DNA of 64,000 nucleotides, taken from the NCBI RefSeq assembly GCF_009671205.1, contig NZ_CP045309.1, positions 6,156,001 through 6,220,000 on the forward strand, read 5' to 3'. The number at the start of each line of letters is the position of its first letter. The first letter of the stretch is position 1. Of the stretch, positions 42,739 through 57,158 are shown in pieces. The position numbers and the translations under genes were made by a program. Source of the DNA: Micromonospora terminaliae (GTDB taxonomy: Bacteria > Actinomycetota > Actinomycetes > Mycobacteriales > Micromonosporaceae). The notes below the pieces were generated by a model that saw only the letters and a list, made by a program, of their open reading frames with translations, did no database searches and was not told the origin of the DNA.

Positions 42739-44787
42739 CTACAGCAGCGAGAGCTGTTCGGCCGCCGGGGCGGGCGGCGCCTCGGGCACCTGACGGTTGT
42801 CGCCGGGCTCGCCCCGGTGCAGCCCGTGCCGGCGGGCCGCCATCCGCACCCGCGCGGTCACCTCCCGCTGGTACGCCTGCGGGGCGTAGGACCCGGCCTG
42901 GTAGAGCCGGCGGTAGCGGGGGACCAGGTGCGGGTACTCGCGGGCCAGCCAGCGCGCGTACCACTCGCGGGCGCCGGGGCGCAGGTGCAGCGGCAGCGGG
43001 GTGACGCTGGTGGCGCCGGACGCGGCGATCGCGGCCACCGTCGCGTCGATCGACTCGTCGTCGTCGCTGAGCCCCGGCAGGATCGGCGCCATGAGCACCC
43101 CGACGGAGAACCCGGCGTCGGTGAGCCGGCGGACGGCGTCGAGGCGGCGACGCGGGCTCGGTGTGCCCGGCTCGACCGCCCGCCACAGCGCCTCGTCGAC
43201 GAACCCCACGGAGTAGGACAGCCCGACCCGGGTCATCTCGGCGGCCTGGCGCAGCAGCGGCAGGTCCCGCAGCAGCAGCGTGCCCTTGGTCAGGATGGAG
43301 AACGGGTTGGCGAAGTCGCGCAGCGCCGCGAGGATCTGGGGCATGAGCGCGTAGCGTCCCTCGGCCCGCTGGTAGCAGTCCACGTTGGTGCCCATGGCGA
43401 TGTGCGCGCCGCGCCACTTCGGGGCCGCCAGCTCACGGCGTACCAGCTCGCCGGCGTTGACCTTGACGATCACCCGGCGGTCGAAGTCGGCCCCGGCATC
43501 GAGGTCGAGGTAGGTGTGCGTGTTGCGGGCGAAGCAGTTGTGGCTGACCACCCCGTTGGCGATGAAGTCGCCGGTGCCGGTGGTGATGTCCCACAGCGGG
43601 AGCTCCAGCCCGAGATCCTCGATGCTCGCCACCCGCAGCCGGGCCCGGCACTTGAGCGCCGTGCCCTCGATCGAGCGCTTGCGGGTGACCGCCGGGTCGG
43701 TCAGGTGGAAGAAGCGCAGCCGCTCCGGCAGGCCGCCGGTCAGCCGGACCTGGCGGGCCCGGTTGACGTTGCCCGGGTCGTCGAGCGCCCAGCGGAAGCC
43801 GAACCGGTCGAGGGCTTCGGCCGCCCGGCGCAGGCTCTCGTCGTCGGTGACGCCGATCCGGAACACGCCCTGCCGGCAACTGCCCACGGCGTCGAAGCTG
43901 CCGGCGAGGAAACCCAGCCACCAGTCGTCCGTCGGCTCGTCGGCCGGGCTGACGAGCTCGGCGACCGCCTCGTCGTCACCGGGCCGGGCGGTGCGGATCG
44001 CGGTCGTCGACCGGCGGCCGGCCCGCACCGGCTGGCCGGGCATCCGTCCGGTGCCGATCCCGGCGTCGGCGAGGAACCGCTCCGCGCGCTCCAGCGCCTC
44101 GTCGTCGCCAGTGGCCAGCCGGAAGCGGCTGCCCGGGTGGTCGGCGTCCCGCACCAGCGCGCAGAGGTAGCCCCGCCGGTAGTCGGCCGAGCGCTTCGGG
44201 GCGGTGGCGAACGCGCCGGTGCCGAGCAGGCGGTTGCGGGTGGTCAGGTAGGGCCGCCGGTCGCCACCCCGCATGCTGCCGGTGACGTGCTTCCAGCCGC
44301 GCTCCGTGAGGAACCGGTGGTCGCCGCTGGCGACCAGCGTGGTGCCGTCCTCCAGGGTCACCCGGTAGGCCCGCTTCACCGTCGACCACTTGTCGCGCAC
44401 GGTGGTGACCACGTAGTGCCGGTAGGCGCCCCGCCGCTCGGTGCCGTAGATCCGGTCGCCGACCTCCAGTTCACTGATCGGCTTCGTGCGGCCGTCGGCC
44501 ATGAGGATCGGCGTGTCACCAGAGACGCAGTAAACGCAGGCATGGGAACAGCCCCGGTAGGGGTTGATCGTCCACTCGAACGGGACGCGGGACTGCCCCG
44601 GTACCCGGTTGATGATCGACTTGGCCCGCACCTCGTAGAAGGTCATGCCGGCGAAGCCCGGGGTGTCGAACGTGCGGGCGATGGCGCCGGGGAGCGCCAG
44701 CGGCAGGGGTGGAGCCGCTGGCGCTGCCCCGTCGGGAGTCCCCTCGTCCGGGGGAGCGGAGAGGTTGTCCCAGCGCATGTGCTTCAT
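42739..44787 (-). CDS. Rv2578c-family radical SAM protein carrying an intein
   Basis: A 682-residue precursor. The host protein (about 351 residues after splicing) starts MKHMRWDNLSAPPDEG, has the family block EWTINPYRGCSHACVYC, and continues FARNTHTYLDLDAG to the end. CxxxCxxC in CSHACVYC binds the [4Fe-4S] cluster that cleaves SAM. The intein (43537-44529, 331 residues) begins CVSGDTPILM and ends GVVSHN. It sits so that the third Cys of the cluster motif is its +1 extein residue. The host would therefore be inactive until splicing. The role of the Rv2578c family is unknown; relation to spore-photoproduct-lyase-like repair is sometimes suggested. ATG at 44787 is used; ATG at 44778 is an alternative. 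Confidence 0.9.
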   Translation of the reverse strand: MKHMRWDNLSAPPDEGTPDGAAPAAPPLPLALPGAIARTFDTPGFAGMTFYEVRAKSIINRVPGQSRVPFEWTINPYRGCSHACVYCVSGDTPILMADGRTKPISELEVGDRIYGTERRGAYRHYVVTTVRDKWSTVKRAYRVTLEDGTTLVASGDHRFLTERGWKHVTGSMRGGDRRPYLTTRNRLLGTGAFATAPKRSADYRRGYLCALVRDADHPGSRFRLATGDDEALERAERFLADAGIGTGRMPGQPVRAGRRSTTAIRTARPGDDEAVAELVSPADEPTDDWWLGFLAGSFDAVGSCRQGVFRIGVTDDESLRRAAEALDRFGFRWALDDPGNVNRARQVRLTGGLPERLRFFHLTDPAVTRKRSIEGTALKCRARLRVASIEDLGLELPLWDITTGTGDFIANGVVSHNCFARNTHTYLDLDAGADFDRRVIVKVNAGELVRRELAAPKWRGAHIAMGTNVDCYQRAEGRYALMPQILAALRDFANPFSILTKGTLLLRDLPLLRQAAEMTRVGLSYSVGFVDEALWRAVEPGTPSPRRRLDAVRRLTDAGFSVGVLMAPILPGLSDDDESIDATVAAIAASGATSVTPLPLHLRPGAREWYARWLAREYPHLVPRYRRLYQAGSYAPQAYQREVTARVRMAARRHGLHRGEPGDNRQVPEAPPAPAAEQLSLL
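43537..44529 (-). mobile_element. Intein with degenerate LAGLIDADG endonuclease
   Basis: Splicing blocks are visible: A is CVSGDTPILMADG (Cys1), B is TLVASGDHRFL with the TxxH pattern, and G is GVVSHN followed by Cys+1. The middle part contains GYLCALVRDADH and WWLGFLAGSFDAVGS, which align with the two LAGLIDADG helices but have lost an acidic residue in the second copy. The homing nuclease may therefore be weak or dead while splicing remains possible. Confidence 0.88.
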
Positions 44788-45284: not shown

Positions 45285-46034
45285 TCAGCCCGGTACGCCC
45301 GTGCAGGCCGCGCCGTCGATGGTGCACGCCGTGGGCGTGGCGCTGAGCGCCGCGCCGTTAACCCGGAACGTGACCCGGACCGTGCCGTGGCCGGGCACCC
45401 CGGCAGCGTCCTCCTCCGGCACGAAGGTCCACGTCGCGCCGTCCCCGGTGGCCCGCGCCCCGGTGACCGAGGTGACCCGGAGCGAATCGCGGGGCAGCAC
45501 GACGACCAGGGTCCAGGTCGGCGCCGGAGCCGTACCGGGGTTGTCGATCGTCACCGCGGCGCCGTAGCTGAGTAGGGCGTTGTCCTCGACCGCGAAGGCG
45601 GCACCCAGCGGGACGGGCGGTGGTGGGGCCGGGGTGGTGGTCCCCGGCGGTGCCCCGGCCGAGGGCCGGGTGGCCGGCGGGGCTGGGACCGCGGGCGCGG
45701 CCGTGGTCACGGGCGGTACGGACGTGCGGGGGTGGGCCACCGTCGGCGCCGGGTGGTCCTCCGGCGTTCCGGTCGCGACCGGCCCGGTCGCCGGCACGCT
45801 GCCGCCAGGACCCACGGCGACCGGCGTCAACCGCTCCGGGGTGCGCAGCACCGTGACGATCGAGTACGCCGTCGCGAGCAGCACGCCCAGCGCGGCGACG
45901 ATGGCCACGTAGGCGAGTCGCGAGCCGTCCCGCCGGCCGGCGGCCGCGCGGCGCACGGCCCGGGCCGCGGCCACGAGCCCGTCCAGCAGGATGATCGGCA
46001 GCGTCCGCCGTGGCGGGGACGGTGGTGCCGGCAC
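45285..46034 (-). CDS. Single-pass membrane protein with CBM2-like outer domain
   Basis: A 249-residue protein. It has a short basic cytoplasmic head, one TM helix (LAYVAIVAALGVLLATAYSI, about residues 40-59), a Pro/Thr/Ala-rich linker to about residue 140, and a C-terminal beta-sandwich (SYGAAVTIDNPGTAPAPTWT; VRVTFRVNGAALSATPTACT) with spacing like carbohydrate-binding module 2. Two Cys near the end could form a disulfide. It lies 58 bases after the DUF742 gene on the same strand and is probably the last member of the hsp70-to-DUF742 operon. It may be the wall- or glycan-facing part of that system. GTG at 46034. Confidence 0.6.
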   Translation of the reverse strand: MPAPPSPPRRTLPIILLDGLVAAARAVRRAAAGRRDGSRLAYVAIVAALGVLLATAYSIVTVLRTPERLTPVAVGPGGSVPATGPVATGTPEDHPAPTVAHPRTSVPPVTTAAPAVPAPPATRPSAGAPPGTTTPAPPPPVPLGAAFAVEDNALLSYGAAVTIDNPGTAPAPTWTLVVVLPRDSLRVTSVTGARATGDGATWTFVPEEDAAGVPGHGTVRVTFRVNGAALSATPTACTIDGAACTGVPG

Positions 46035-46092
46035 TGGGCCTTTCCCCCTTCAGGTCGTCCCTCGGGCCGGAGCCCGCGGTTTCCGCCGCACC

Positions 46093-46473
46093 TCACAGCG
46101 TGCGGAGACCGTCGAGCAGCGCCTCGAGCAGTTCCCTGGACGGCGCCCCGGACAGTGACGGCGGCTCGTGCGTCTCGATCAACCCCACCTCCAGCAGATC
46201 GCCGAGCAGCACCCGGACGGTACCCAACGGAAGCTCCAGGTCGGCGGCGACCTCCGCCACCGACAGTGGACGGTGGCACCGGTCGACGATACGCGCCTGC
46301 TCGGGAAACAACCGCGCCGAGGGAGGCACGCTCCGCCGGGTCACCACGAGGGAGATCAGGTCGAGCTGGCCGTGCTCGGACGTGAGGCGCCCGCGCGTCA
46401 CCGTGTACGGCCGGGCCACCGGCCCGGCGTCCTCGTCGTACCACGCCTCGTCACGGTCTCCAGTGGTGCGCAC
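46093..46473 (-). CDS. DUF742 protein (conservon CvnC-like)
   Basis: A 126-residue protein of the DUF742 family. It shows VARPYTVTRGRLTSEHGQLD, ISLVVTRRSVPPSARLFPEQ, and a winged-helix-like end (LSVAEVAADLELPLGTVRVL). In Streptomyces conservons DUF742 proteins (CvnC) lie between a roadblock protein and a small GTPase and form part of a membrane-associated signalling complex. Here the gene overlaps the roadblock gene by 23 bases, but no GTPase gene follows. GTG at 46473. Confidence 0.87.
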   Translation of the reverse strand: MRTTGDRDEAWYDEDAGPVARPYTVTRGRLTSEHGQLDLISLVVTRRSVPPSARLFPEQARIVDRCHRPLSVAEVAADLELPLGTVRVLLGDLLEVGLIETHEPPSLSGAPSRELLEALLDGLRTL

Positions 46474-46894
46474 CGCTGGTCCCGCCGGTTGCCGTCCGGG
46501 CTTCGAGGTAGACGGGCAGCGCGCGCTCGGCCTGTGCCGCGAACAGCGCCACCTCGTACGCCATGTCGCCGACGTCGGCGTCTCCGCTCATCCGGACGGT
46601 GAGGATCGCGCCGCCCCGCGTGGTGGCGACGAACACGAACGAGCGCGCCATCTGCACGACGACCTGCCGGAGCCCGCCGGCGAGGCACACCCGCCCGGCG
46701 GCCTGCCCCAGCGCGTACAGCCCGCTGACCAGGCTGGCGAGATGCTCCGCGAGTTGGTCCGCCAGGTGCCCGGACCGGCCGAGCAGCAGGCCGTCGGGGG
46801 AGAGGACCACGGCGACCTCGGCCCCCGGGACCCGGTCGACCAGGCCGTCGAGGGCGTCGGTCAGGCTGTCGGTGGCGACCGCTGAATGCGTCAT
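46451..46894 (-). CDS. Roadblock/LC7-domain protein (conservon CvnB-like)
   Basis: A 147-residue protein with the roadblock fold: LDGLVDRVPGAEVAVVLSPD, GLLLGRSGHLADQLAEHLAS, VVQMARSFVFVATTRGGAIL. Such proteins normally regulate a small Ras-like GTPase. The ATG at 46894 shares a 4-base ATGA overlap with the stop of the kinase gene, and the gene end overlaps the DUF742 gene. ATG is chosen because the family begins at this point and a GAGAGGACC site precedes it. Confidence 0.9.
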   Translation of the reverse strand: MTHSAVATDSLTDALDGLVDRVPGAEVAVVLSPDGLLLGRSGHLADQLAEHLASLVSGLYALGQAAGRVCLAGGLRQVVVQMARSFVFVATTRGGAILTVRMSGDADVGDMAYEVALFAAQAERALPVYLEARTATGGTSGAHHWRP

Positions 46895-48732
46895 ACAGGT
46901 CCTCTCCCGCTGTTGCGGAGCGTTGTGGCGAGGTTGTCGGGGACGGTGGGCGCGGGCGGGACCGCGCCGGACGGGCGGACCCGTGTGGGCAGCCCGCTCT
47001 CGTCGACCGCCGGAGCCGGCGGGTGCGAGGCCGGCACACCGTCGCCGGCGGGCGTGGCCGGGGTGACGAGACCGGGCGGGAGCAGTACGACGGCGGCGGT
47101 CCCGCCGCGCGGGCCGGGACGGAGCGAGACCCGGGCGCGGCACCGGGCGGCGAGCAGGCCGGCGACGCGCAACCCGGTGTGGCCGGCCTGCGAACCGTCC
47201 AGGAGCGCGTTCGCCTCGGCCAGCGCGGCGGTGCCCAGGCCCGGCCCGTCGTCCAGGATCACCACGGCGCAGCCCTGCGGCCCCGGCTCACCGGCGACCC
47301 GCACCGTGGTGTGCTCCGGCGAGCAGGCCAGCCCGTTCTCGATCAGCTCGGCCAGCAGGTGGACGACGTCGGTGACGGCGGTCCCCGCGAGCGTCCACGG
47401 CCAGTGCGGAGCGATCAGCACCCGGTGGTAGTCGGGCACCTCGGCCACCGCCCCGCGGACCACGTCGAGCAGCGGCACGGGCCGCCGCCAGCGGCGGGCC
47501 GGCACCGCACCGGCGAGGATCACCAGCTTCTCCACGTTCCGCCGGACCCGGGTGGCGAGGTGGTCGAGCCGGAACAGGTCGGCCGTCTCCTCCGCCGTCC
47601 GCTCGCGCCGCTCCATGGTGCCCAGCAGGGTGAGCTGCTCGTGCAGGAGGGCCTGGTTGCGCCGGGTCAGCCGCAGGAAGAGCTCGCCGGCCCCGGCCGG
47701 CTCCGACGCCGCGTCGCCGGTTGGGCGGCGGACGGCACGGGCCCAGCCGACCAGCACGACGAGCACGGCGATGAGCCCGAGCCCCACCACCACGCCGGTA
47801 CGGGTGACCACCAGGGCGGCGCCGGGGGCGGCCCGCTCGACGCTGCCGCGTGCCGTGCTGGTCACCAGGTCCCGCAGCCCGCTCAGGGCCGGGTCGACCG
47901 CCTCCCGCCAGCCCTGCGCACCGATCCCGGCCGTGCCGCCGGCGCCCGCCGTCCGCAGCAGCCGGTCCTCGATCCGCAGCAGGCCGGCGAACCGGGGGCT
48001 CTCCACCAGCCGCTGGTGCCGGTCGCGTCCGTCCGGCGGCAGCGCCGCGGCGGCGGCCGTGCGGGCGTACCGCTGGGTGGTGACCAGCTCGACCAGGCGG
48101 CGCCGGTCGTCGTCGCCGAGCCCGGCGCCGGCCAGGGCCGCGGTCATCAGGGTGTCCTCGCGGGCGAGCAGCTCGCGGGCCCGGGCCAGCGCGACGACGG
48201 CCCGGGTTTCGGCGGCCAGCTCGTCCTCGCGCCCGCCCCACTCCGGCCCGTACACCGCGAAGGCGGTGTCGATCAGCCGGTCGTACGCCGCCACCGCGCC
48301 GGGCCGGTCGAGCCGCCCGCTGTCCACCTCGGACCGGAGGGTGGCCAGCCCGGCCAACTGCCGGACCAGCTCGTCGGCGCGGCGCCGCACCGCGCCCGCC
48401 GTGAGCAGCCGCGGGTCGTGGCCCTCGGTGAACCCGCGCACGGGGGCGACCGCGCCGTCCGTCCGGTCGCGCGCCCCGGCCAGTGCGTCCCGGGTGCGCC
48501 CCGCATCGGCGAGCGTCTCGGCGGTCAGCCGGCGTTCGGACTGGAGGGTGAGGATCAGCAGGTCGGTGGGCTGTCCGAGGGTGTTCGCCAGGGCCCGGAC
48601 CCGGACCAGGCCGGCGGCGTCCCGGACGGTCAGCACCGCCGCGTACGCCCAGAGGGTCAGCAGCACGGCGGCCAGCGCGCCGAGCCTCAGCCGCAGGCCG
48701 GGGTCACCGGGTCGCCCCGCCGGCCGGTTCAC
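46891..48732 (-). CDS. Nitrate-sensing-type histidine kinase (conservon CvnA-like)
   Basis: A 613-residue membrane kinase. A first TM helix lies at residues 13-30 (GALAAVLLTLWAYAAVLTV). A long extracytoplasmic helical NIT-type sensor follows (LILTLQSERRLTAETLADA), then a second TM helix (VVVGLGLIAVLVVLVGWARA), a DHp-like helix (FRLDHLATRVRRNVEKLVIL) and a HATPase domain with N-box ELIENGLA and G1 box DDGPGLG. No HAMP domain is seen. The C-terminus is Pro-rich. Kinases of this kind head conservons. GTG at 48732 overlaps the stop of the LuxR gene by 4 bases (GTGA), so all these genes are translationally chained. Confidence 0.85.
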   Translation of the reverse strand: MNRPAGRPGDPGLRLRLGALAAVLLTLWAYAAVLTVRDAAGLVRVRALANTLGQPTDLLILTLQSERRLTAETLADAGRTRDALAGARDRTDGAVAPVRGFTEGHDPRLLTAGAVRRRADELVRQLAGLATLRSEVDSGRLDRPGAVAAYDRLIDTAFAVYGPEWGGREDELAAETRAVVALARARELLAREDTLMTAALAGAGLGDDDRRRLVELVTTQRYARTAAAAALPPDGRDRHQRLVESPRFAGLLRIEDRLLRTAGAGGTAGIGAQGWREAVDPALSGLRDLVTSTARGSVERAAPGAALVVTRTGVVVGLGLIAVLVVLVGWARAVRRPTGDAASEPAGAGELFLRLTRRNQALLHEQLTLLGTMERRERTAEETADLFRLDHLATRVRRNVEKLVILAGAVPARRWRRPVPLLDVVRGAVAEVPDYHRVLIAPHWPWTLAGTAVTDVVHLLAELIENGLACSPEHTTVRVAGEPGPQGCAVVILDDGPGLGTAALAEANALLDGSQAGHTGLRVAGLLAARCRARVSLRPGPRGGTAAVVLLPPGLVTPATPAGDGVPASHPPAPAVDESGLPTRVRPSGAVPPAPTVPDNLATTLRNSGRGPV

Positions 48733-51293
48733 CGCGGCTCCCGTTCCGGCCAGGGTTGCCGGCCCGGCGCGCTCGACCGGTCGGCGACGACGGTGCGCAG
48801 CAGGGCCAGCAGCTCCGCCCGGTTGGCGCAGTTCAGCCGCGACCGCATCCGTGCGACGTGATGCTCGACCGTCTTCGCCGAGATGAAGAGCCGGTCGCCG
48901 ATCTCCCGGTAGGTCAGGCCGGCCAGCACCAGCTCGGCCACCTCGTGCTCCCGGTCGCTGAGCCGGTAGCGGGTGGGACCGGTGCCGGCGTCGGTCGCCG
49001 GTGCGTCGTCCGCCTCGCCCGTGCGGGCGGCCGGCCGCGCCTGGAGCACCCGGGCGCACTCCAGCAGGGTGGTCATGGCCCGCCGGTCCGAGGTGCGGAT
49101 CGCGGCCTGCCCGGCCAGGCGGGCGGCGTCCCAGCACAGGCCGGCGTCGTGCAGCCCGCGGGCGGCGGCCTCCACCCGGACCGGGTCCACGACGCCGCGC
49201 AGCACCTCGACCCAGCTCGCGGCGGCCGCGGCGGCCACGGCGGCGTACCGGCTGTGGTCGGCGGCGGCGAGCAGGGCGGCGACGTGGGCGTCGGCGACGG
49301 CCGGCTCCTCGGTGAGGATCGCGGCGTGCAGCCCGGTCCAGTGCAGCGGCGCGCTCCACAGCGCCGGGCCGTCGAGCCGGTCCAGCAGCAGCCAGGCCTC
49401 CCGCAGGTAGGGCTTCAGGCGGTCCAGGTCGCCCAGCCGGGCGCCCGCGACCGCCAGCTCGCCCAGCGGCAGCAGCGTGAACAGGTCCACCGGGTGCCGG
49501 ACCACCGCCTCCAGCGCCGGGCCCCAACCGCGTTGCAAGGCCCCGACGTCGCTGGTGCGCCGGGCGATGCCGAGCCGGAGCGCACTGGCCAGGAGCAGGT
49601 CACGCGACTCCAGTGGCCGGCCGCCGGCCGTCACCGCGGCGAGCCGGTCGGCCGCGGCGGCCGTCTGGCCGCGGACCATCAGGATCCAGGCCTGCAACAG
49701 CCGGTGGCGGCAGACCATCAGGGGCCCGCCGATGCCGGTGGCGACGGCCCGGTCCAGCACCCCCTCCGCGATGTCCAGCTCGGCACAGTGGACGGCGGTC
49801 AACGCGGCGAGCGCGGCCGGGCTGTCCGGCAGGAGCACCCGCCGCCCGTCCGGCTCCAGCAGCGCGGTCGCCTGCACCAGCCGGGACAGCGCGGTGGTGG
49901 GCGGGCCGCTGACGCTCTCCCGTACCCCCTCGGCCATCAGCCGCGCGGCGCTGGCGTGCAGGGTCGGCGGCCCGCCGGCCGGGTCGTCGGGCAGGTCCGC
50001 GCCCGTGGGCGGACGGCCGAGGGCGAGCGCGCCGACGGCGGCGAAGGCGGCGGACGGGGCGAGGCGAGACCACCGGTACAGCTCGACGCTGCGCTCCACC
50101 TGGCCCCGGTGCGCCAGCGCCGTCGCGGCCACCGTGGCCGCCTCCGCCCGCACGGGCGGCGGGGCCGTCGCCAGCAGGCGGTTCGCCAGCCGCAGCGCGG
50201 CCTCCAGGTCGCCGGCGAGCGCGGCGGCGACGGCCTCCCGGGCACCGGCCGGCAGGCCGGCCGCGGTGGCCGCGGCGAACAGCTCGGCGGAGAGCGCGGG
50301 CTCGCCGCCCAGCGCCTCCTCGGCGGCGGCCTCCAGCGCCGCGGCCGGGCAGTCGGCCAACGCGCCCGCCGCCCGCAGGGACCGGACCAGCGGAAGCACC
50401 GCGGCGCCACGACCGAGCTGCACCTCGGTGAGACGGCGCCAGATCGCCGTGCGGTCGGTGGCCGGGCTCAGCGCGACGACCGCCCGCCGCACGACCGGCG
50501 CGAGCCGGCCATCGGCCCCGAGCAGGCCGGCCGCCCTGGTGTACGCCACCAGGTCGTCCACCGCCGCCGGCTCCCGGTCGAGCAGCGGGCCGAGCAGGTC
50601 CACGGGCAGCGGCACGCCCGCGGCGACGGCCAGCAGCAGCCGCCGGGCGTCCGGCGGCAGTTCCTCCAGGTCGGTGCCGAACGCCAGGACGGCCGCCCGC
50701 GGCGGCTCGGCCGGGAGTCCGGGTGGGCGCTCCGGCCCGCGCAGCCCGCGGACCAGCCGCTCGACGTCCCGCGGGACTCCGCCGGTCTGCCCGTGCACGA
50801 ACGCCGCCAGCTCGTCGCCCCGGTCGAGGTCGGGCACGCCGGCGAGGTAGTCGCGCGTCTGCTCGGCGGTGAACGGGCCCAGCACGACCTGCTGCCCGTC
50901 CCGTTTCAGCGCGTCGGCCAGCCGGGCCAGCGCGGCCGACCGGGGCCACGGCCGGTAGCCGATCAGCAGCCGGTGCCGGCGGCCGACCACCAGCCGGCGC
51001 AGCGTCTCCAGCCGCGCGTCGTCCAGCAGGTGCGCGTCGTCGACCACCAGCGCGGTCTCCGGGTCGACCGGCTGGTCCGGGCTCGGGGCGCCGTCCCGCA
51101 CGGCCCCGCCCGCGTCCCGGTGGACGCGCGCCAGCTCCCGGAGCAGGACGCTCTTGCCGTGGCCGCCGGGGCCCGTCACGCCGAGGGCGAGGGGGCGCCC
51201 GGGATCCGCCGCGACCGCGCCGAGCAGGGCGGTCGGCTCGGGGCCCAGCACGAGCCGGGCGTCCGTGGCGGCACTCATGATCATGACGGTCAT
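48729..51293 (-). CDS. Large ATP-binding LuxR/MalT-type regulator, IniR-like
   Basis: An 854-residue regulator. Walker A is GPGGHGKS at residues 41-48, and Walker B ALVVDDAHLL is near residues 81-90. A STAND-like winged helix follows, then about 450 residues of helical repeats and a C-terminal LuxR helix-turn-helix (LSDREHEVAELVLAGLTYRE; LFISAKTVEHHVARMRSRL). MalT-type regulators bind a small ligand and ATP, assemble and activate transcription. Its size and its place opposite iniBAC match mycobacterial Rv0339c (IniR, 832 residues), the activator of iniBAC reported to respond to free trehalose. ATG at 51293 overlaps the hsp70 stop (ATGA). Confidence 0.82.
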   Translation of the reverse strand: MTVMIMSAATDARLVLGPEPTALLGAVAADPGRPLALGVTGPGGHGKSVLLRELARVHRDAGGAVRDGAPSPDQPVDPETALVVDDAHLLDDARLETLRRLVVGRRHRLLIGYRPWPRSAALARLADALKRDGQQVVLGPFTAEQTRDYLAGVPDLDRGDELAAFVHGQTGGVPRDVERLVRGLRGPERPPGLPAEPPRAAVLAFGTDLEELPPDARRLLLAVAAGVPLPVDLLGPLLDREPAAVDDLVAYTRAAGLLGADGRLAPVVRRAVVALSPATDRTAIWRRLTEVQLGRGAAVLPLVRSLRAAGALADCPAAALEAAAEEALGGEPALSAELFAAATAAGLPAGAREAVAAALAGDLEAALRLANRLLATAPPPVRAEAATVAATALAHRGQVERSVELYRWSRLAPSAAFAAVGALALGRPPTGADLPDDPAGGPPTLHASAARLMAEGVRESVSGPPTTALSRLVQATALLEPDGRRVLLPDSPAALAALTAVHCAELDIAEGVLDRAVATGIGGPLMVCRHRLLQAWILMVRGQTAAAADRLAAVTAGGRPLESRDLLLASALRLGIARRTSDVGALQRGWGPALEAVVRHPVDLFTLLPLGELAVAGARLGDLDRLKPYLREAWLLLDRLDGPALWSAPLHWTGLHAAILTEEPAVADAHVAALLAAADHSRYAAVAAAAAASWVEVLRGVVDPVRVEAAARGLHDAGLCWDAARLAGQAAIRTSDRRAMTTLLECARVLQARPAARTGEADDAPATDAGTGPTRYRLSDREHEVAELVLAGLTYREIGDRLFISAKTVEHHVARMRSRLNCANRAELLALLRTVVADRSSAPGRQPWPEREPR

Positions 51294-52522
51294 CCTTCGC
51301 GATCCCGGCCGCGCCCCCGGGCCAGCGCCAGGCGGGACGTCTTCGGCAGGGTCAGCGGGGTGATCCGGACCGGGGGGCGGGCCGGCGGCTCGCCGTGCCG
51401 GGGCTGGTCGGGTTCGGTGTGCCGCCGGGCCGGGACGGGAGGCCCGGCGTCGCTGACGGGTGCGGCGGCCGGCGCGGGGCGGCGCGGGCGCGGGGACACC
51501 ACCTGGCCGGCGGCCAGCGCCGCGCCGGTGGCGGCGGTCAGCTGGGGGTCCGGCTCCACCTCGACGGGAACGGGCAGGGCCGCGGTGAGCAGTTCGCGGA
51601 CCAGCGGGATCCGGGCCGAGCCGCCCGCCAGGAGGACGGCGTCGAGCTGCGCCGGCGTCAGCCCGGCGGAGTGCACGGTCCGCACCAGCAGGTCGACGGT
51701 GGCGCGCACCGCGGGCCGGATCAGGTCCTCGAACCGGGCCCGGGTCACCGGCACCCGCACCGGCCCGTCCACCAGGGTGAGCACGACGTCGGTCTCCGTG
51801 CCGATGGTCAGCTCGCGCTTGACGCGCTCGCACTCCGCCAGCAGCCCGTGCGGCGCGAGCCCGGGGCCGAGCGCGGCCCGCACGTGTTCGGCGAGCGCCT
51901 CGTCGAAGTCGGTGCCGCCGAGCGACTCGAGGCCCTGCGGGAGGCCGAACGTCTCATATCTGCCCCGCGCGTTGCGGCGGACCAGCGCCGCCTCGAAGGT
52001 GTCGCCGCCGAGGGCGTAGACCGCGGCCGTGGTGCCCGGGAAGCCTCGGGCGGCGTGGCTCTCGGCCACCGTGACCGTGCGGGGGAGCAGCGTCACAGTG
52101 CGCAGGTCGAGGGTCCACAGCGCCCGGTACAGCAGGTCGCGCCGGTGCGGGCCCCACCCGGCGGCATGGCTGAGCACGACGGCCTCGGGGAAGGCGCCCT
52201 CGTGGGCGGCCACGCGGTGCACCACCCACGCCGCCAGCTCCGCGACCAGCGTCTCCGGCGGGCACGGTTCACCGCCGAGCAGGAGGGGCACGTCGTCGCC
52301 GACCCGGCGGACGAAGTCGCGGGTGGTGCGGCTGCCGTCGTCGGTGGCGGGCTCGCCGACCACCAGCGCTCCGTCGGGCGCCAGGTGCAGCACCGACGGT
52401 ACGACCGGGGACCCGCCGCCCAGCGCGACGACCTCGGGACGGGCCCAGGTCTCGCCCCGCCGTCTCGCGACGGTGGCGGCCGTGCCGGTGTTTCCGATGT
52501 CCAACCCCAGGACGTACGGCAT
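51290..52522 (-). CDS. Hsp70-like ATPase lacking the substrate-binding domain
   Basis: A 410-residue protein. The actin-like ATPase fold is complete to about residue 345: phosphate-1 GLDIGNTGTAATV (residues 6-18), phosphate-2 VYALGGDTFEAAL (168-180, with Ala where DnaK has Asp), and the adenosine motif LLAGGSARIPLVRELL. After this comes only a Pro/Arg-rich tail; the peptide-binding domain is missing (DnaK is about 640). It may be a regulatory or cytoskeleton-like ATPase rather than a general chaperone. ATG at 52522 has GGAGGAAG 7 bases before it. It is the first gene of the leftward operon, divergent from iniB. Confidence 0.85.
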   Translation of the reverse strand: MPYVLGLDIGNTGTAATVARRRGETWARPEVVALGGGSPVVPSVLHLAPDGALVVGEPATDDGSRTTRDFVRRVGDDVPLLLGGEPCPPETLVAELAAWVVHRVAAHEGAFPEAVVLSHAAGWGPHRRDLLYRALWTLDLRTVTLLPRTVTVAESHAARGFPGTTAAVYALGGDTFEAALVRRNARGRYETFGLPQGLESLGGTDFDEALAEHVRAALGPGLAPHGLLAECERVKRELTIGTETDVVLTLVDGPVRVPVTRARFEDLIRPAVRATVDLLVRTVHSAGLTPAQLDAVLLAGGSARIPLVRELLTAALPVPVEVEPDPQLTAATGAALAAGQVVSPRPRRPAPAAAPVSDAGPPVPARRHTEPDQPRHGEPPARPPVRITPLTLPKTSRLALARGRGRDREG

Positions 52523-52636
52523 TCGTTCTTCCTCCACCGCGAGTGGCCTGGGGACGGTGTCGGCACCGTGTGGACCCACCCCCGGCGAACCCCGTGGGCT
52601 CCTACGTTCGTACCAGAGATCACCGCCGACCCGGTA

Positions 52637-52759
52637 CCCTAACTCCGGCCGGCCCGGCTCCCCCTGTCCCCCTAACGCACGAGGGGGCGAGGGCCCTAAT
52701 CGGCGGGGGGCGGTTGCGGGTCGCGCCCCGATGACGGCACGGATCCCCGGCCCTAGCGT
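52637..52759 (+). promoter_or_regulatory. Array of CCCTAA/G repeats in the iniB-hsp70 divergent region
   Basis: CCCTAA occurs at 52637, 52670 and 52694, and CCCTAG at 52751. The last overlaps a possible -10 box (TAGCGT, 52754-52759) about 49 bases before the iniB start. The copies have the same direction, as expected for direct-repeat sites of a MalT/LuxR-type activator. The 285-bp region has no other gene. Binding by the IniR-like protein is an inference. Confidence 0.5.
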
Positions 52760-52807
52760 CACTGTCGCGGCACGACGGTGCTGACGCTACTTCGAGGAGA
52801 CGCCCCC

Positions 52808-53737
52808 ATGGATTCGCACCAGACCCTGCACGACTTCGTGCTCAACCTGCTCACCGACCCCGACGCGCGGTCGGCCTTCGACCTCGACCCGGAGGGTGCG
52901 CTGCAGGCCGCGGGGCTCACCGACGTCACCGCCGCCGACGTGCAGGACGTCGTTCCGCTGGTGGTCGACTACGCCCCCGGCGCGGCCGGGCTCGCGCCGG
53001 TGGCCCCGGTGGCCGGGCAGCTCGGGCTCGACCCGCTCACGAGCGACGCCACCGACGTGGTCGGCCAGCTCCAGGCGCTGCCGTACCAGGTCGGCGTGAG
53101 CAGCTCCCACAGCGGCGTGGACGTCTCGGCCGGCGCGCTGGGCGCCATCGCGGTCGACCCGGCCGGCCTGTACGCGGGTGCGTCGCTGGTCCCGGGCGTC
53201 GGCCTGGGCGTCGGGCCCGGCGGGCTCGGCACCGACCTGACCGCGGTGCACGACGTGGCGGACACCCTCGACTCGGACGTGGTGGGCGCCGTGGACACCG
53301 CCGCCGACCCGGTCGTCGGGGACATCGCCGGGACGGCCGGCGACCCGCTCGGCACCACGTCCGGCGTGGACGTGCTGCACGACGGTGGCCTGCTGGGCGG
53401 CGGCGACCTGGGCGTCCTGGGCGGCACGCAGGCCCAGGTCGACGGCGTCGTCGGCTCGCTCGGCGTCGACCACACCCTGGGCGGGCTCGGCCTGGGCGAC
53501 GGCTCGGGCGTGGTTCCGCCGGTGCACGTCCCGGCCACCGTGGACGGTGTGACGCACCAGGTGGACAGCACCCTCTCCGGCGTCACCGGCACGGTCAGCG
53601 GTGTGACGGGCACGGTCGGTGGCCTGACCGGCGGGATCACCGACGGGGTGAGCGGCGACGCCGGGGCGCACGCCGCCGGGGTCCACGGCGACGTGCACGG
53701 CTCGACCGACGGCGGCCTGCTGGGCGGGCTGCTCTGA
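52808..53737 (+). CDS. iniB: IniB-like Gly/Val/Asp-rich protein
   Basis: A 309-residue protein. The N-terminal 50 residues form the IniB domain (LHDFVLNLLTDPDARSAFDL; ALQAAGLTDVTAADVQDVVP). The rest is low complexity, rich in Gly, Val, Asp and Ala, with imperfect repeats (SGVTGTVSGVTGTVGGLTGG). There is no signal peptide or TM helix. M. tuberculosis IniB (479 residues) has the same N-terminal domain and glycine-rich body and is strongly induced by cell-wall inhibitors; its function is unknown. ATG at 52808 follows GAGGAG. It is the first gene of the rightward ini-like operon. Confidence 0.87.
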   Translation: MDSHQTLHDFVLNLLTDPDARSAFDLDPEGALQAAGLTDVTAADVQDVVPLVVDYAPGAAGLAPVAPVAGQLGLDPLTSDATDVVGQLQALPYQVGVSSSHSGVDVSAGALGAIAVDPAGLYAGASLVPGVGLGVGPGGLGTDLTAVHDVADTLDSDVVGAVDTAADPVVGDIAGTAGDPLGTTSGVDVLHDGGLLGGGDLGVLGGTQAQVDGVVGSLGVDHTLGGLGLGDGSGVVPPVHVPATVDGVTHQVDSTLSGVTGTVSGVTGTVGGLTGGITDGVSGDAGAHAAGVHGDVHGSTDGGLLGGLL

Positions 53738-53755
53738 CCGAGTGCTCAGCCAGGG

Positions 53756-53781
53756 ACGGGAGGCCCGATCCGGCCTCCCGT
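53756..53781 (+). terminator. Hairpin between iniB and iniA (terminator or attenuator)
   Basis: ACGGGAGGCC and GGCCTCCCGT form a perfect 10-bp stem with a 6-base loop, 19 bases after the iniB stop and 57 before iniA. It could lower iniA/iniC transcription relative to iniB. Confidence 0.6.
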
Positions 53782-53812
53782 TCCGGTTGGCGTTCACGAC
53801 CCTCTTGATAAT

Positions 53813-53828
53813 TGCGCTGAAATGCGCA
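53813..53828. promoter_or_regulatory. Short inverted repeat just before iniA
   Basis: TGCGC-TGAAAT-GCGCA lies 11-26 bases before the GTG of iniA, next to TTGATA (53805-53810), a possible -35 box. It may mark a second promoter or operator for iniAC. Confidence 0.35.
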
Positions 53829-53838
53829 CACTTGGTGC

Positions 53839-55695
53839 GTGATCGCGGGGATCTGGCTGGACGTGCTCGACGAGATCGCCCGTACGTGCGGCGCACACGG
53901 GCGGGGCGACCTGCTCCAGACGGTGCGCCAGAAGCGGGTGCAACTGCTGGACCCCCGGCTGCGCGTCCTGGTCGTCGGCGAGTCGCAGCAGGGCAAGAGC
54001 CAGCTCATCAACGCCATCGTCAACGCACCGGCCTGCCCGGTCGGCGACGGCCGCACCACCGTGCTCCCCACCGTTGTGCAGCACGCGGAGGTCCCGTCGG
54101 CCGCCCTGGTCCAGGCGCCGCCGCCCGCCCCGGGCCGGACCGCCGCGGCGCTCCCGGGAACCGGCGAGCGGACCCCGGTGCCGCTGGACCAGGTCGCCGC
54201 CGGGGTGGCCGGCACGTTCGGTCGGCGGCCTGGCGGCGGTCCCGCGTACGTCGAGATCGGACTGCCGCGCGCGCTGCTCGGCTCCGGGCTGGTGCTGGTG
54301 GACACCCCGGGCACGGAGGAGGCGGCCGCGCTGGTCGCCGCCGGCCCGACCGCCGCGCCGGCGTGGGCGGACACCGTGCTGCTGGTCTCCGACTCCACCC
54401 GGGAACTCTCGGCCGGTGAGCTGACCATGCTGCTGCACGTCGCGCGCTCGCACCCGAACGTGGTGCTGGTGCAGACCAAGACGGATCTCGTGCCGGACTG
54501 GCGCGCGGTCGCCGAGCGCAACCGGCAGCACCTCGCCGAGGCCGGTGTGGCGGCGCCGGTCATCCCGGTCTCGGCGGCCCTGCGGCTGCGCGCGGCCGCC
54601 GGCGACGACCGGGAGCTGAACGCCGAGTCGGGCTTTCCCGTGCTGATCGCCCGGCTGCAGCGGGACCTCGCCGGCAAGTCCGACCGCCTGGCCCGGGCCG
54701 CGGTCGGCGTGATCGCCCGGACCGTGGTGGAACAGCTGGCCGCGCCGTTGCGCGCCGAGCTGGAGAGCCAGGAGGTCGAGGAGCAGTCCGGACCCATCTC
54801 CCGGCTCCACGCGGCGCAGCGGGAGGTCGACGAGCTGCGCCGCTGCTCCACCAGGTGGCAGAACACGCTGGCCGACGAGATGGCCGACCTGCTCTCCGAC
54901 ATCGAGTACGACCTGCGCGACCGCACCCGGCAGATCCTGCGGGAGGTGGACGACGCCTTCGACAGCGCCGATCCGCTGGTCAGCTGGGACACGTTCCAGG
55001 AGTGGCTGGAGCGCAGCCTCACGGAGGCGGCGGAGGCAAACCACGAGTGGCTCGTCCGGCGCTGCGACTGGGCCGCCCGCCGGGTGGCCGACACCTTCGC
55101 CCGGTACGGCGGCGACGTGCTGCCGCCCTGGTCGGCGACGGCGCCCCCGGACCCGGGTGCGGGCCTGCCGGAACTGGAGAGGCCCACCGTCGACCGGTTC
55201 ACCACGAGCCAGAAGCTGATCAGCGGCATGCGGGGTTCGTACGGCGGCCTGCTCATGGTCGGGCTGGCGACGACGCTGGCCGGGATGCCCATGATCAACC
55301 CGCTGTCGGTGGGGGTCGGCGCCCTGTTCGGCGGCAAGAGCATCCGCGACGAGAGCAAGCAACTGCTCCGCCGCCGCCAGGCGGTCGTCAAGACGGCGAT
55401 CCAGCGGCACGTGGACGACTTCTTCGTCCGGGTCACCAAGGACCGCCGGGACGCCGTGCGGCAGGTCCAGCGGATGCTGCGGGACCACTTCACGGCGCTG
55501 ACCGAGGAACTCCAGGAGGCCATCATCCGGTCGTTCCGCAGCGCCAAGCAGGCCGCCGACACCGACGCGGCCGTCCGCGACCAGCGGCAGCGCGAGATCC
55601 GGCTGAAGATGACCCGGCTGGCCGGCCTCTTCGACCAGGCCCAGCAGCTGACCGGCGCCCGGCCGGCCCCGGCGCCGCTGGAGCCCCGGCCATGA
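53839..55695 (+). CDS. iniA: Dynamin-like GTPase, IniA-like
   Basis: A 618-residue bacterial dynamin-like protein (IniA is 640). The GTPase domain shows G1 GESQQGKS (residues 47-54), a likely G2 Thr in GRTTVLPTVV, G3 DTPG (155-158) and G4 TKTD (213-216). Long helical bundles follow, with a hydrophobic paddle (LMVGLATTLAGMPMINPLSV, about 470-490) that would insert in the membrane. IniA homologues bind and remodel membranes and protect against envelope-acting drugs. GTG at 53839. The stop overlaps the iniC start (ATGA), so equal production of the two GTPases is likely. Confidence 0.9.
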   Translation: MIAGIWLDVLDEIARTCGAHGRGDLLQTVRQKRVQLLDPRLRVLVVGESQQGKSQLINAIVNAPACPVGDGRTTVLPTVVQHAEVPSAALVQAPPPAPGRTAAALPGTGERTPVPLDQVAAGVAGTFGRRPGGGPAYVEIGLPRALLGSGLVLVDTPGTEEAAALVAAGPTAAPAWADTVLLVSDSTRELSAGELTMLLHVARSHPNVVLVQTKTDLVPDWRAVAERNRQHLAEAGVAAPVIPVSAALRLRAAAGDDRELNAESGFPVLIARLQRDLAGKSDRLARAAVGVIARTVVEQLAAPLRAELESQEVEEQSGPISRLHAAQREVDELRRCSTRWQNTLADEMADLLSDIEYDLRDRTRQILREVDDAFDSADPLVSWDTFQEWLERSLTEAAEANHEWLVRRCDWAARRVADTFARYGGDVLPPWSATAPPDPGAGLPELERPTVDRFTTSQKLISGMRGSYGGLLMVGLATTLAGMPMINPLSVGVGALFGGKSIRDESKQLLRRRQAVVKTAIQRHVDDFFVRVTKDRRDAVRQVQRMLRDHFTALTEELQEAIIRSFRSAKQAADTDAAVRDQRQREIRLKMTRLAGLFDQAQQLTGARPAPAPLEPRP

Positions 55696-57158
55696 CGGTC
55701 GGGCTGCGGCTGGACGAGGCGGTCTGGGGGTTGCTGCACGAGGCGCTCCAGCACTACCGGGACAATCCCCGGGCGACGGACCACCTGCGGCACCAGCTGG
55801 CCCGGCTGGAGCAACCGCTGCGGATCGCGATCGCGGGCCCGTGGCGGTCCGGCAAGTCGACCCTGCTCAACGCGATCATGGGCGAGGAGGTCGCGCCGGT
55901 CGACGGCGTGGACGGCAGCACCGTCTTCACCTGGTACGAGGACGGGCCGCAGCCGAGCGCCACCGCGTACGCGAGCGGGCAGCCGCCGCAGGAGCTGGCG
56001 ATCGCCAAGTCGGCGACCGGGATGCGGGTGGACCTGGTCGGCTGGCGGGCGGGCGAGCTGCGCGACATCGTGGTGCAGTGGCCCACCCGGACGCTGCGCC
56101 AGGTGACGCTCATCGACACCCCGGCCACCGGCCGCGACGAGCAGGGCCGGGCGCCGGTGATGGAGCGGGTGCTGCGGGACGCCGACGCGGTGCTGTACCT
56201 GACCCGCGACGGGCGCGACAGCGACCTGCGCGTGCTGGAGACCAGCCGGGAGAGCGCGGTCGGGCAGGCCGCCGCCGTGCACGTGATCATGGTGCTGTCC
56301 CGGGTGGACGAGACCGGCGGTGGCCGGATCGACGGCCTGCTCACCGCTCGCCGGCTCGCCCGCCGACAGCACCGGGACCCCCGGGTGAACGAGCTCAGCG
56401 TGCACGTCGTCCCGTGCAGCGGCCTGCTCGGGCTGGCCGGCCGGATCCTCAGCGAGTCCGACCACGCGGTGCTCGCGGCGCTGGCCCGGGTGCCCCGTCC
56501 GGAGCTGGAGACGCACCTGCTCTCGGCCGACCGCTTCCTCCGCGGCGACCTGCCCGTCCGGATCGACACCGGCGTACGCGCCGCGCTGCTGGACCGGCTC
56601 GGGCTCTTCGGGATCCGGCTGGCGACCACGCTGGTCCGCACCGGCTGCGACAGCCGGGCGAAGCTCTCCGCCGAGCTGATCCGGCGCAGCGGCCTGGCCG
56701 AGCTGCGCGAGTCGATGGCCCGCCTCCTGATCGACCGGCGGGACACCCTCAAGGCGCGCTCGGCGCTGGCGGCCGTCGAGGCGCTGGTGCGGGCCGAGCC
56801 CGGCCCCGGTACGGAAGACCTGCTGGGCCGGGTCGAGCAGATCCTCGTCGGGGCGCACGAGTTCCGCGAGCTGCGCCTGCTCGCCGCGTTGCGGACCACC
56901 CGGCTCGGGTTCGACGCCGACCTGGCGGCCGAGGCGGCGCGGCTGGTCGGCGGCGACGGGATCGGCCTCGCGGCCCGGCTCGGCGTGGAGCACGACGCCA
57001 CGGTGCACCGGCTGTGGGACGTCGCCTCGGAGGCCCAGTGGCGGTGGCGGAACCGCGCCGAGGATCCGCTGCTACGGCTGGCCCAGCGGCGCGGCGCCCA
57101 GGTCGTCGTCCGCAGCTGCGAGGGGATGCTCGCCGAGCTGGCCGAGGGAGGCCGGTGA
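55692..57158 (+). CDS. iniC: Dynamin-like GTPase, IniC-like
   Basis: A 488-residue dynamin-like protein (IniC is 493). G1 is GPWRSGKST (residues 49-57) and G3 is DTPA (142-145). The G4 position reads SRVD (203-206) instead of N/TKxD, so guanine recognition may be altered. The helical remainder lacks an obvious hydrophobic paddle, as expected for the partner of a membrane-binding IniA. It is translationally coupled to iniA. The last 87 bases overlap the end of the HTTM gene on the opposite strand. Confidence 0.88.
   Translation: MTVGLRLDEAVWGLLHEALQHYRDNPRATDHLRHQLARLEQPLRIAIAGPWRSGKSTLLNAIMGEEVAPVDGVDGSTVFTWYEDGPQPSATAYASGQPPQELAIAKSATGMRVDLVGWRAGELRDIVVQWPTRTLRQVTLIDTPATGRDEQGRAPVMERVLRDADAVLYLTRDGRDSDLRVLETSRESAVGQAAAVHVIMVLSRVDETGGGRIDGLLTARRLARRQHRDPRVNELSVHVVPCSGLLGLAGRILSESDHAVLAALARVPRPELETHLLSADRFLRGDLPVRIDTGVRAALLDRLGLFGIRLATTLVRTGCDSRAKLSAELIRRSGLAELRESMARLLIDRRDTLKARSALAAVEALVRAEPGPGTEDLLGRVEQILVGAHEFRELRLLAALRTTRLGFDADLAAEAARLVGGDGIGLAARLGVEHDATVHRLWDVASEAQWRWRNRAEDPLLRLAQRRGAQVVVRSCEGMLAELAEGGR

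What the first reader, a model, noticed from the sequence alone, without database searches (positions are those of the whole stretch)
45285..57158. IniBAC-like dynamin module joined to Hsp70, an IniR-like regulator and a kinase/roadblock/DUF742 chain
Rightward genes match IniB (N-terminal domain plus Gly-rich body), IniA and IniC (618 and 488 residues against 640 and 493, with GTPase motifs). Leftward, every junction from hsp70 to DUF742 is an overlap (ATGA, GTGA, ATGA, 23 bases), so the Hsp70-like ATPase, the MalT-like regulator (854 against 832 residues in Rv0339c) and the signalling proteins are made together. Mycobacteria have iniR and iniBAC but, as far as I know, not the Hsp70-kinase-roadblock-DUF742 part. 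I infer an envelope-stress system in which the kinase/roadblock branch and the ATP-binding regulator control or work with membrane-remodelling dynamins.
Basis: partly seen in the sequence, partly recalled or inferred. Interest (0 to 1): 0.85.

Follow-up and report, generated by a model that had tools for sequence, protein, structure and literature searches.

The report
Hsp70-linked dynamin envelope-stress gene cluster
A soil actinomycete carries the drug-inducible membrane-remodelling genes known from mycobacteria joined to a crippled Hsp70-like protein and a sensor-kinase set, and comparing genomes suggests that the Hsp70 partner is an old, overlooked core part of this system while the sensor set is a later local addition.

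Summary
They divide into an old core and a young addition. Core: 53 of 55 IniA+IniC loci found through IniR or IniA (29 genera, 7 families) have an ini-type Hsp70 gene although gene order is shuffled; 0 of 9 distant dynamin loci do. In type II Micromonosporaceae loci and other classes it is predicted to span the membrane with catalytic residues intact (21 of 21 rows). In mycobacterial-family loci the residues are eroded; in type I Micromonosporaceae (window included) 0 of 52 rows keep them and 47 show no membrane segment. Addition: the kinase, roadblock and DUF742 genes are a conservon without its Ras-like GTPase, seen only in Micromonosporaceae, in variable subsets. New lead: same-strand CCCTAA repeats in the shared hsp70/iniB promoter, also upstream of 14 of 14 IniB-domain genes of the mycobacterial family, are a candidate IniR operator. 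Function is inferred, not tested.

The parts
45285..46034 (-). membrane protein: short cytoplasmic part, one hydrophobic segment (read by eye), Pro/Thr-rich linker, CBM_2-like domain; stands where a conservon has its GTPase
   Evidence: Pfam CBM_2 30.1 bits, cut-off 24; sequence; relatives downstream of DUF742
46093..46473 (-). DUF742 protein (CvnC-like)
   Evidence: Pfam DUF742 113 bits
46451..46894 (-). roadblock/LC7 protein (CvnB-like)
   Evidence: Pfam Robl_LC7 61 bits
46891..48732 (-). NIT-domain sensor kinase (CvnA-like), GTG start overlapping the iniR stop
   Evidence: Pfam NIT 132.7 bits; HATPase_c 24.2 bits, just under cut-off (run on 46891-48711); overlap read on the sequence, -4 in 20 of 20
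48729..51293 (-). IniR-like signal-transduction ATPase with LuxR-type DNA-binding end
   Evidence: NF038181 481.6 bits, cut-off 750, residues 22-837
51290..52522 (-). Hsp70-like protein: nucleotide-binding domain only, catalytic residues eroded, low-confidence proline-rich tail with a conserved motif
52523..52807 (.). shared divergent promoter region of hsp70 and iniB
   Evidence: sequence; alignment across Micromonospora
52603..52621 (+). conserved block TACGTTCGTACCAGAGATC, recognised in Micromonosporaceae
52637..52642 (+). CCCTAA repeat 1, candidate IniR box
52670..52675 (+). CCCTAA repeat 2, candidate IniR box
52694..52699 (+). CCCTAA repeat 3, candidate IniR box
52808..53737 (+). IniB-like protein: IniB N-terminal domain plus Gly-rich body
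   Evidence: NF038175 75 bits, cut-off 40
53839..55695 (+). IniA, dynamin-like GTPase
   Evidence: 6j72 IniA E 3.6e-92 over residues 4-607; Dynamin_N
55692..57158 (+). IniC, second dynamin-like protein; P-loop clear, later GTPase motifs look weak by eye
   Evidence: Dynamin_N 35.4 bits, cut-off 27; sequence

Best explanation
The locus is the Micromonospora form of the IniR-IniBAC envelope-stress system. SHOWN (by sequence): a core of IniR-like regulator, IniB-domain protein, dynamin pair IniA-IniC and an Hsp70-type protein tends to stay together in 7 families and at least two classes of the phylum despite shuffled gene order. In type II Micromonosporaceae loci and in other classes the Hsp70 is a predicted single-pass membrane protein with intact catalytic residues; in the mycobacterial family and in type I Micromonosporaceae the residues are eroded, and in type I the membrane segment and outer part are mostly gone too. 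In part of that family a conservon lacking its Ras-like GTPase, plus a CBM2 membrane protein, is appended in the same overlapping operon. INFERRED: IniR, on sensing an envelope-stress signal, binds the CCCTAA repeats in the shared promoter and turns on iniBAC (and perhaps its own arm); IniA and IniC then cut or reshape damaged membrane. The Hsp70 protein is the coupling part: originally a membrane-spanning, ATP-driven sensor or clamp for IniR or the dynamins, here a soluble pseudo-ATPase that binds and holds a partner. The NIT kinase, roadblock, DUF742 and CBM2 proteins supply an outside-in signal in place of the lost membrane part.
For: Hsp70 linkage with loci not chosen by Hsp70: 54 of 55 pair loci have Hsp70 over 100 bits; in one of these, L137, it is DnaK proper by tree, so 53 of 55, counting L135, whose Hsp70 is a long branch of unsure grouping. 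The miss, L073, has two Hsp70 pieces under 100 bits. Control: 0 of 9 distant dynamin loci over 30 bits; this genome has Hsp70 at only 4 places. 44 ini-Hsp70 and kin rows group apart from DnaK (SH-aLRT 89, quick tree). Residues: all six kept, with a membrane segment, in 21 of 21 type II and other-class rows; 0 of 52 type I rows; 0 of 11 mycobacterial-family ini-Hsp70 rows, 9 of which keep a segment. Operator: CCCTAA on the coding strand within 350 bp of 69 of 80 IniB-domain genes, reverse strand 2 of 80, random segments 43 of 4000; doubled site only here in the own genome; 31 of 150 listed doubled sites in the family sample lie 0.9-2.2 kb from a type I IniR. In M. tuberculosis IniR binds directly upstream of iniBAC, and M. 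smegmatis IniA cuts membranes (PMC5760070, PMC6715688; passages). Conservon: 7 DUF742 over cut-off but 6 CvnD in the genome; 30 ini kinase rows form one group (SH-aLRT 99, quick tree).
Against: No expression, binding or activity data for any Micromonospora gene. Accessory genes are absent from 10 of 45 type I loci with room to see them, including genera whose Hsp70 is just as eroded, so erosion and conservon gain are not tightly linked; of six such loci looked at, only L077 has a same-strand protein with a hydrophobic segment close behind IniR. L028 (family f8, no conservon genes) also has an eroded Hsp70 without a segment, and L135 an intact one without a segment. About half of the family sample has no IniR match (99 of 200 have one at E 1e-40). 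The repeats are missing upstream of 11 of 80 IniB-domain genes. The motif was noticed in these loci before it was counted, many type I loci are close kin, and the random segments include coding DNA. Doubled sites also occur by chance: 128 of 200 genomes have one or more, and the reversed control pattern is at least as common. Loss of catalytic residues does not exclude ATP binding; the K70 position rests on a weakly aligned stretch. Membrane segments come from a simple hydropathy scan, which also marks 5 of the 52 type I rows.
Confidence: 0.5

Rival explanations
1. Conservon-to-dynamin wiring: the roadblock/DUF742/kinase proteins have lost their Ras-like GTPase because their GTPase partner is now the dynamin pair, and the roadblock protein regulates IniA/IniC GTP turnover directly.
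For: Only GTPase-less one of the 7 DUF742 loci over cut-off in this genome; the 27 ini roadblock rows lie on one side of the tree, including those standing beside IniR without a kinase (SH-aLRT 93, quick tree); overlaps conserved.
Against: Roadblock is missing in some loci that keep the kinase and DUF742 (L058, L070, L076, L100) and all conservon genes are missing in others; 18 of 18 pair loci outside the family have the dynamins without them. No interaction evidence.
Confidence: 0.15
2. Hsp70 acts only on IniR: as a holding partner that keeps the STAND-type regulator off (or folded), comparable to the inhibitors of MalT; the dynamins are merely its targets.
For: Hsp70 and IniR overlap by 4 bases in 19 of 27 Micromonospora loci and are neighbours in most type I and mycobacterial-family loci seen. 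The MalT comparison is recalled, not from a call.
Against: Hsp70 stays with IniA-IniC in genomes without an IniR match at E 1e-40 (L130, L134, L135) and sits next to the dynamins rather than IniR in many type II and other-class loci.
Confidence: 0.2
3. The conservon genes are an unrelated neighbour that drifted into the operon and is decaying; they have no role in the ini response.
For: Patchy composition: full set in 21 of 45 type I loci, subsets in 14, none in 10 (41 distinct contigs).
Against: The genes that remain have open frames, the kinases form one group kept across genera, and the iniR-kinase overlap is exact in 20 of 20 Micromonospora loci.
Confidence: 0.15

Closest known systems
Mycobacterial iniR-iniBAC system
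   Same: IniB domain, IniA matching 6j72, IniC, divergent IniR-like regulator, and (mycobacterial-family loci here) an Hsp70-like gene and CCCTAA repeats before iniB
   Different: window has the overlapping kinase-roadblock-DUF742 set and a CBM2 protein; its Hsp70 lacks membrane segment and outer tail; regulator scores below NCBI's IniR cut-off
Conservon / actinobacterial G protein system (CvnA-D)
   Same: NIT-type sensor kinase, roadblock protein and DUF742 protein in the usual order
   Different: no CvnD GTPase; a CBM2 membrane protein in its place; sits behind hsp70-iniR
DnaK/Hsc70 chaperones
   Different: no substrate-binding domain; of six checked catalytic positions one kept, one Asp to Glu, four changed in kind; not in a dnaK operon

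Membership tests
IniBAC (IniB, IniA, IniC) | IniB N-terminal domain | tested here: met
   NF038175 75 bits, cut-off 40
IniBAC (IniB, IniA, IniC) | IniA similar end to end to solved IniA | tested here: met
   6j72, E 3.6e-92, residues 4-607 of 618
IniBAC (IniB, IniA, IniC) | second dynamin-type protein directly after IniA | tested here: met
   Dynamin_N over cut-off; 4-base overlap by coordinates
IniBAC (IniB, IniA, IniC) | induction by cell-wall inhibitors | not testable with these tools
   needs expression data
IniR | score over the curated equivalog cut-off | tested here: not met
   481.6 of 750 bits, near full length; 0 of 200 family genomes pass it
IniR | binds upstream of iniBAC | not testable with these tools
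   only the conserved repeats speak for it
Conservon / AGPS | CvnA-like kinase, CvnB-like roadblock, CvnC-like DUF742 in order | tested here: met
Conservon / AGPS | CvnD Ras-like GTPase after DUF742 | tested here: not met
   no hit in the window; six CvnD in the genome, none here
Hsp70 chaperone | Hsp70 nucleotide-binding domain | tested here: met
Hsp70 chaperone | substrate-binding domain | tested here: not met
   410 aa; Pfam match ends at profile position 376 of 599; residues after about 350 are of low confidence in the model
Hsp70 chaperone | catalytic residues D8 T11 K70 E171 D194 D201 (numbering and list recalled) | tested here: not met
   window DNVRAE; K70 position in a weakly aligned stretch

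The most novel reading that the evidence does not exclude
A membrane-spanning Hsp70 is the ancestral partner of a bacterial dynamin pair: an ATP-driven clamp that reports envelope damage through the membrane and loads, holds or disassembles IniA-IniC. In mycobacteria and Micromonospora it became a pseudo-ATPase sensor, and in Micromonospora a conservon that discarded its own G protein was wired onto the dynamin GTPases instead.
Probability: 0.17. Interest if true: 0.87.

Novelty: new variant of a known kind. Interest (0 to 1): 0.64.

Why it matters
IniBAC is the classic drug-induced operon of mycobacteria, yet how envelope damage reaches IniR and what helps the dynamins is open. A conserved Hsp70-type partner, present in mycobacterial-family loci and mentioned only in one passage of the texts seen here, and a short predicted IniR operator make both questions directly testable, in harmless actinomycetes. 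It would also be a natural case of an Hsp70 turning into a pseudo-ATPase, and of a conservon working without its G protein.

Tried and rejected
An early idea that eroded Hsp70 goes with presence of IniB was dropped: with a model of the IniB N-terminal domain IniB-domain genes turn up in 73 of 82 pair loci. The doubled CCCTAA site as a unique mark of the regulon was dropped: unique in the own genome, not in others. A replacement sensor gene downstream of IniR was looked for in six type I loci without conservon genes (L063, L077, L078, L086, L087, L096; also L083 and L028): no shared gene was seen; L077 has a membrane-type protein close behind IniR, L086 one 2.2 kb away. The DUF742 tree did not separate ini and other copies cleanly. 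The trees are quick trees; the careful kinase tree did not finish. Label slips: the scripts took families f14 and f16 for f1; one search recounted (0 of 13 became 0 of 18; 'none' 11 became 10). Rows dropped: L036-L064 from the Hsp70 linkage count (found by Hsp70); 10 truncated loci from the composition count; L082, L099, L100, L101, L108 and L073 from the residue table (Hsp70 in short pieces); IniB-domain genes with under 250 bp upstream from the promoter count. Contigs seen twice (L090=L064, L093=L047, L094=L050, L095=L040) were left out once of trees and promoter counts; the composition count is 45 loci, 41 distinct contigs. A fold search with the plain 'pdb' library was not obtained.

Full report
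What is there. The window is Micromonospora (genome of 6.74 Mb; window at C1 6156001-6220000; nearest named kin are Micromonospora). Leftward from 52522: Hsp70-like protein, IniR-like regulator, NIT kinase, roadblock, DUF742, CBM2 protein. Rightward from 52808: IniB, IniA, IniC. Start sites corrected: hsp70 52522, kinase 48732.

The old core. I collected loci through IniR and IniA, so that Hsp70 was not the bait, and annotated them with profiles built from the window genes and their relatives. Of 55 loci with an IniA+IniC pair, 54 have an Hsp70 over 100 bits. In one of the 54 (L137) it is DnaK proper by the tree, leaving 53 of 55; L137 is from a genome whose ini Hsp70, IniR and IniB domain lie on another contig (L027). 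The count includes L135, whose Hsp70 is a long branch of unsure grouping. The remaining miss, L073, has two Hsp70 pieces of 20 and 87 bits. The 55 span 29 genera and 7 families, some in other classes of the phylum; 37 of the 55 are in the window's family. Nine distant dynamin loci have no Hsp70 over 30 bits (0 of 9). Gene order differs strongly between lineages (for example IniR-IniB-IniA-IniC-Hsp70 against Hsp70-IniR with divergent IniB-IniA-IniC), which speaks for a functional tie. In the 55, an IniB-domain gene is found in 46 and IniR over 150 bits in 49 (most were chosen by IniR).

The young addition. The kinase-roadblock-DUF742 set is a conservon without the GTPase. The genome has 7 DUF742 genes over cut-off and 6 CvnD-type GTPases; each of the other six DUF742 loci has a CvnD, this one has none. 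Conservon genes over 30 bits were seen in 0 of 18 pair loci outside Micromonosporaceae. Among 45 type I loci with room to see them (41 distinct contigs), 21 have all four genes, 14 a subset, 10 none. 30 ini kinase rows form one group (SH-aLRT 99, quick tree), so the set was probably gained once and lost in parts. Two loci (L099, L108) have a separate full conservon right behind it.

The promoter. The 285-bp divergent region holds three same-strand CCCTAA repeats (52637, 52670, 52694). CCCTAA occurs on the coding strand within 350 bp upstream of 14 of 14 IniB-domain genes of the mycobacterial family, 49 of 52 of type I, 4 of 7 of type II, 2 of 6 of other classes and 0 of 1 of family f8; on the reverse strand in 2 of 80; in 43 of 4000 random segments of the same loci. 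Resampled versions of the hsp70-iniB regions themselves give 0.01 to 0.17 copies per region (both strands) against up to 4 observed. The motif was noticed before it was counted, and many type I loci are close kin. In the own genome the doubled site occurs only here (2 overlapping matches, reversed control 0). In 200 family genomes it is not unique (128 have one or more, control at least as frequent), but 31 of the 150 listed sites lie 0.9-2.2 kb from a type I IniR, in 25 of the 33 listed genomes that have one (the tool cut its list short). IniR of M. tuberculosis gives a strong ChIP peak directly before iniBAC (PMC5760070, passages); the passages seen there and in PMC13413693 give no IniR binding sequence.

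How it may work. Shown: architecture, linkage, residue loss, conserved repeats. Known from papers: M. smegmatis IniA cuts membranes with GTP (PMC6715688, passages); trehalose activates iniBAC in M. marinum, attributed to IniR (PMC5760070, passages). Inferred: IniR acts at the repeats; the Hsp70 part couples envelope state to IniR or the dynamins; in Micromonospora the NIT kinase and the CBM2 protein supply the outside signal. A link of Hsp70 to the dynamins rather than to IniR alone is favoured because it stays with the pair in genomes with no IniR match at E 1e-40 (L130, L134; L135 with a diverged trio) and often lies next to the pair when the order changes.

What is known. Searches of the open PMC library (listings, of which four papers were opened in part) showed no paper with both iniBAC and Micromonospora (0 papers), and I saw none linking Hsp70 with the dynamin pair apart from the remark on a dnaK-like gene beside iniR in M. 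smegmatis. Subscription papers are mostly not in that library. Conservon background: PMC13343842 (abstract, one section, passages).

Noticed in passing
window 42739-44784 (-): Intein-containing Rv2578c-family radical SAM protein (NF038136 909 bits, cut-off 700); several Micromonospora relatives score much lower in the same place, perhaps without the intein.
   Followed up: partly
L135 (G204, same genus, no IniR match): A diverged IniC-IniA-Hsp70 trio without IniR or IniB; its Hsp70 has intact catalytic residues but no predicted membrane segment and a long branch.
   Followed up: partly
L099 14765-18587, L108 2371-6069: A complete conservon with GTPase directly behind the GTPase-less ini set.
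   Followed up: partly
L020, L021, L025: A second eroded Hsp70 copy near the ini genes of mycobacterial-family genomes.
   Followed up: no
window 52603-52621: Block TACGTTCGTACCAGAGATC, highly conserved in Micromonospora and recognisable in other genera of the family, on the hsp70 side of the promoter; role unknown.
   Followed up: partly
G592, contigs C52, C66, C82, C85: Repeated CCCTAACGTTGGCG-like units at several places, not near the IniR match of that genome.
   Followed up: no
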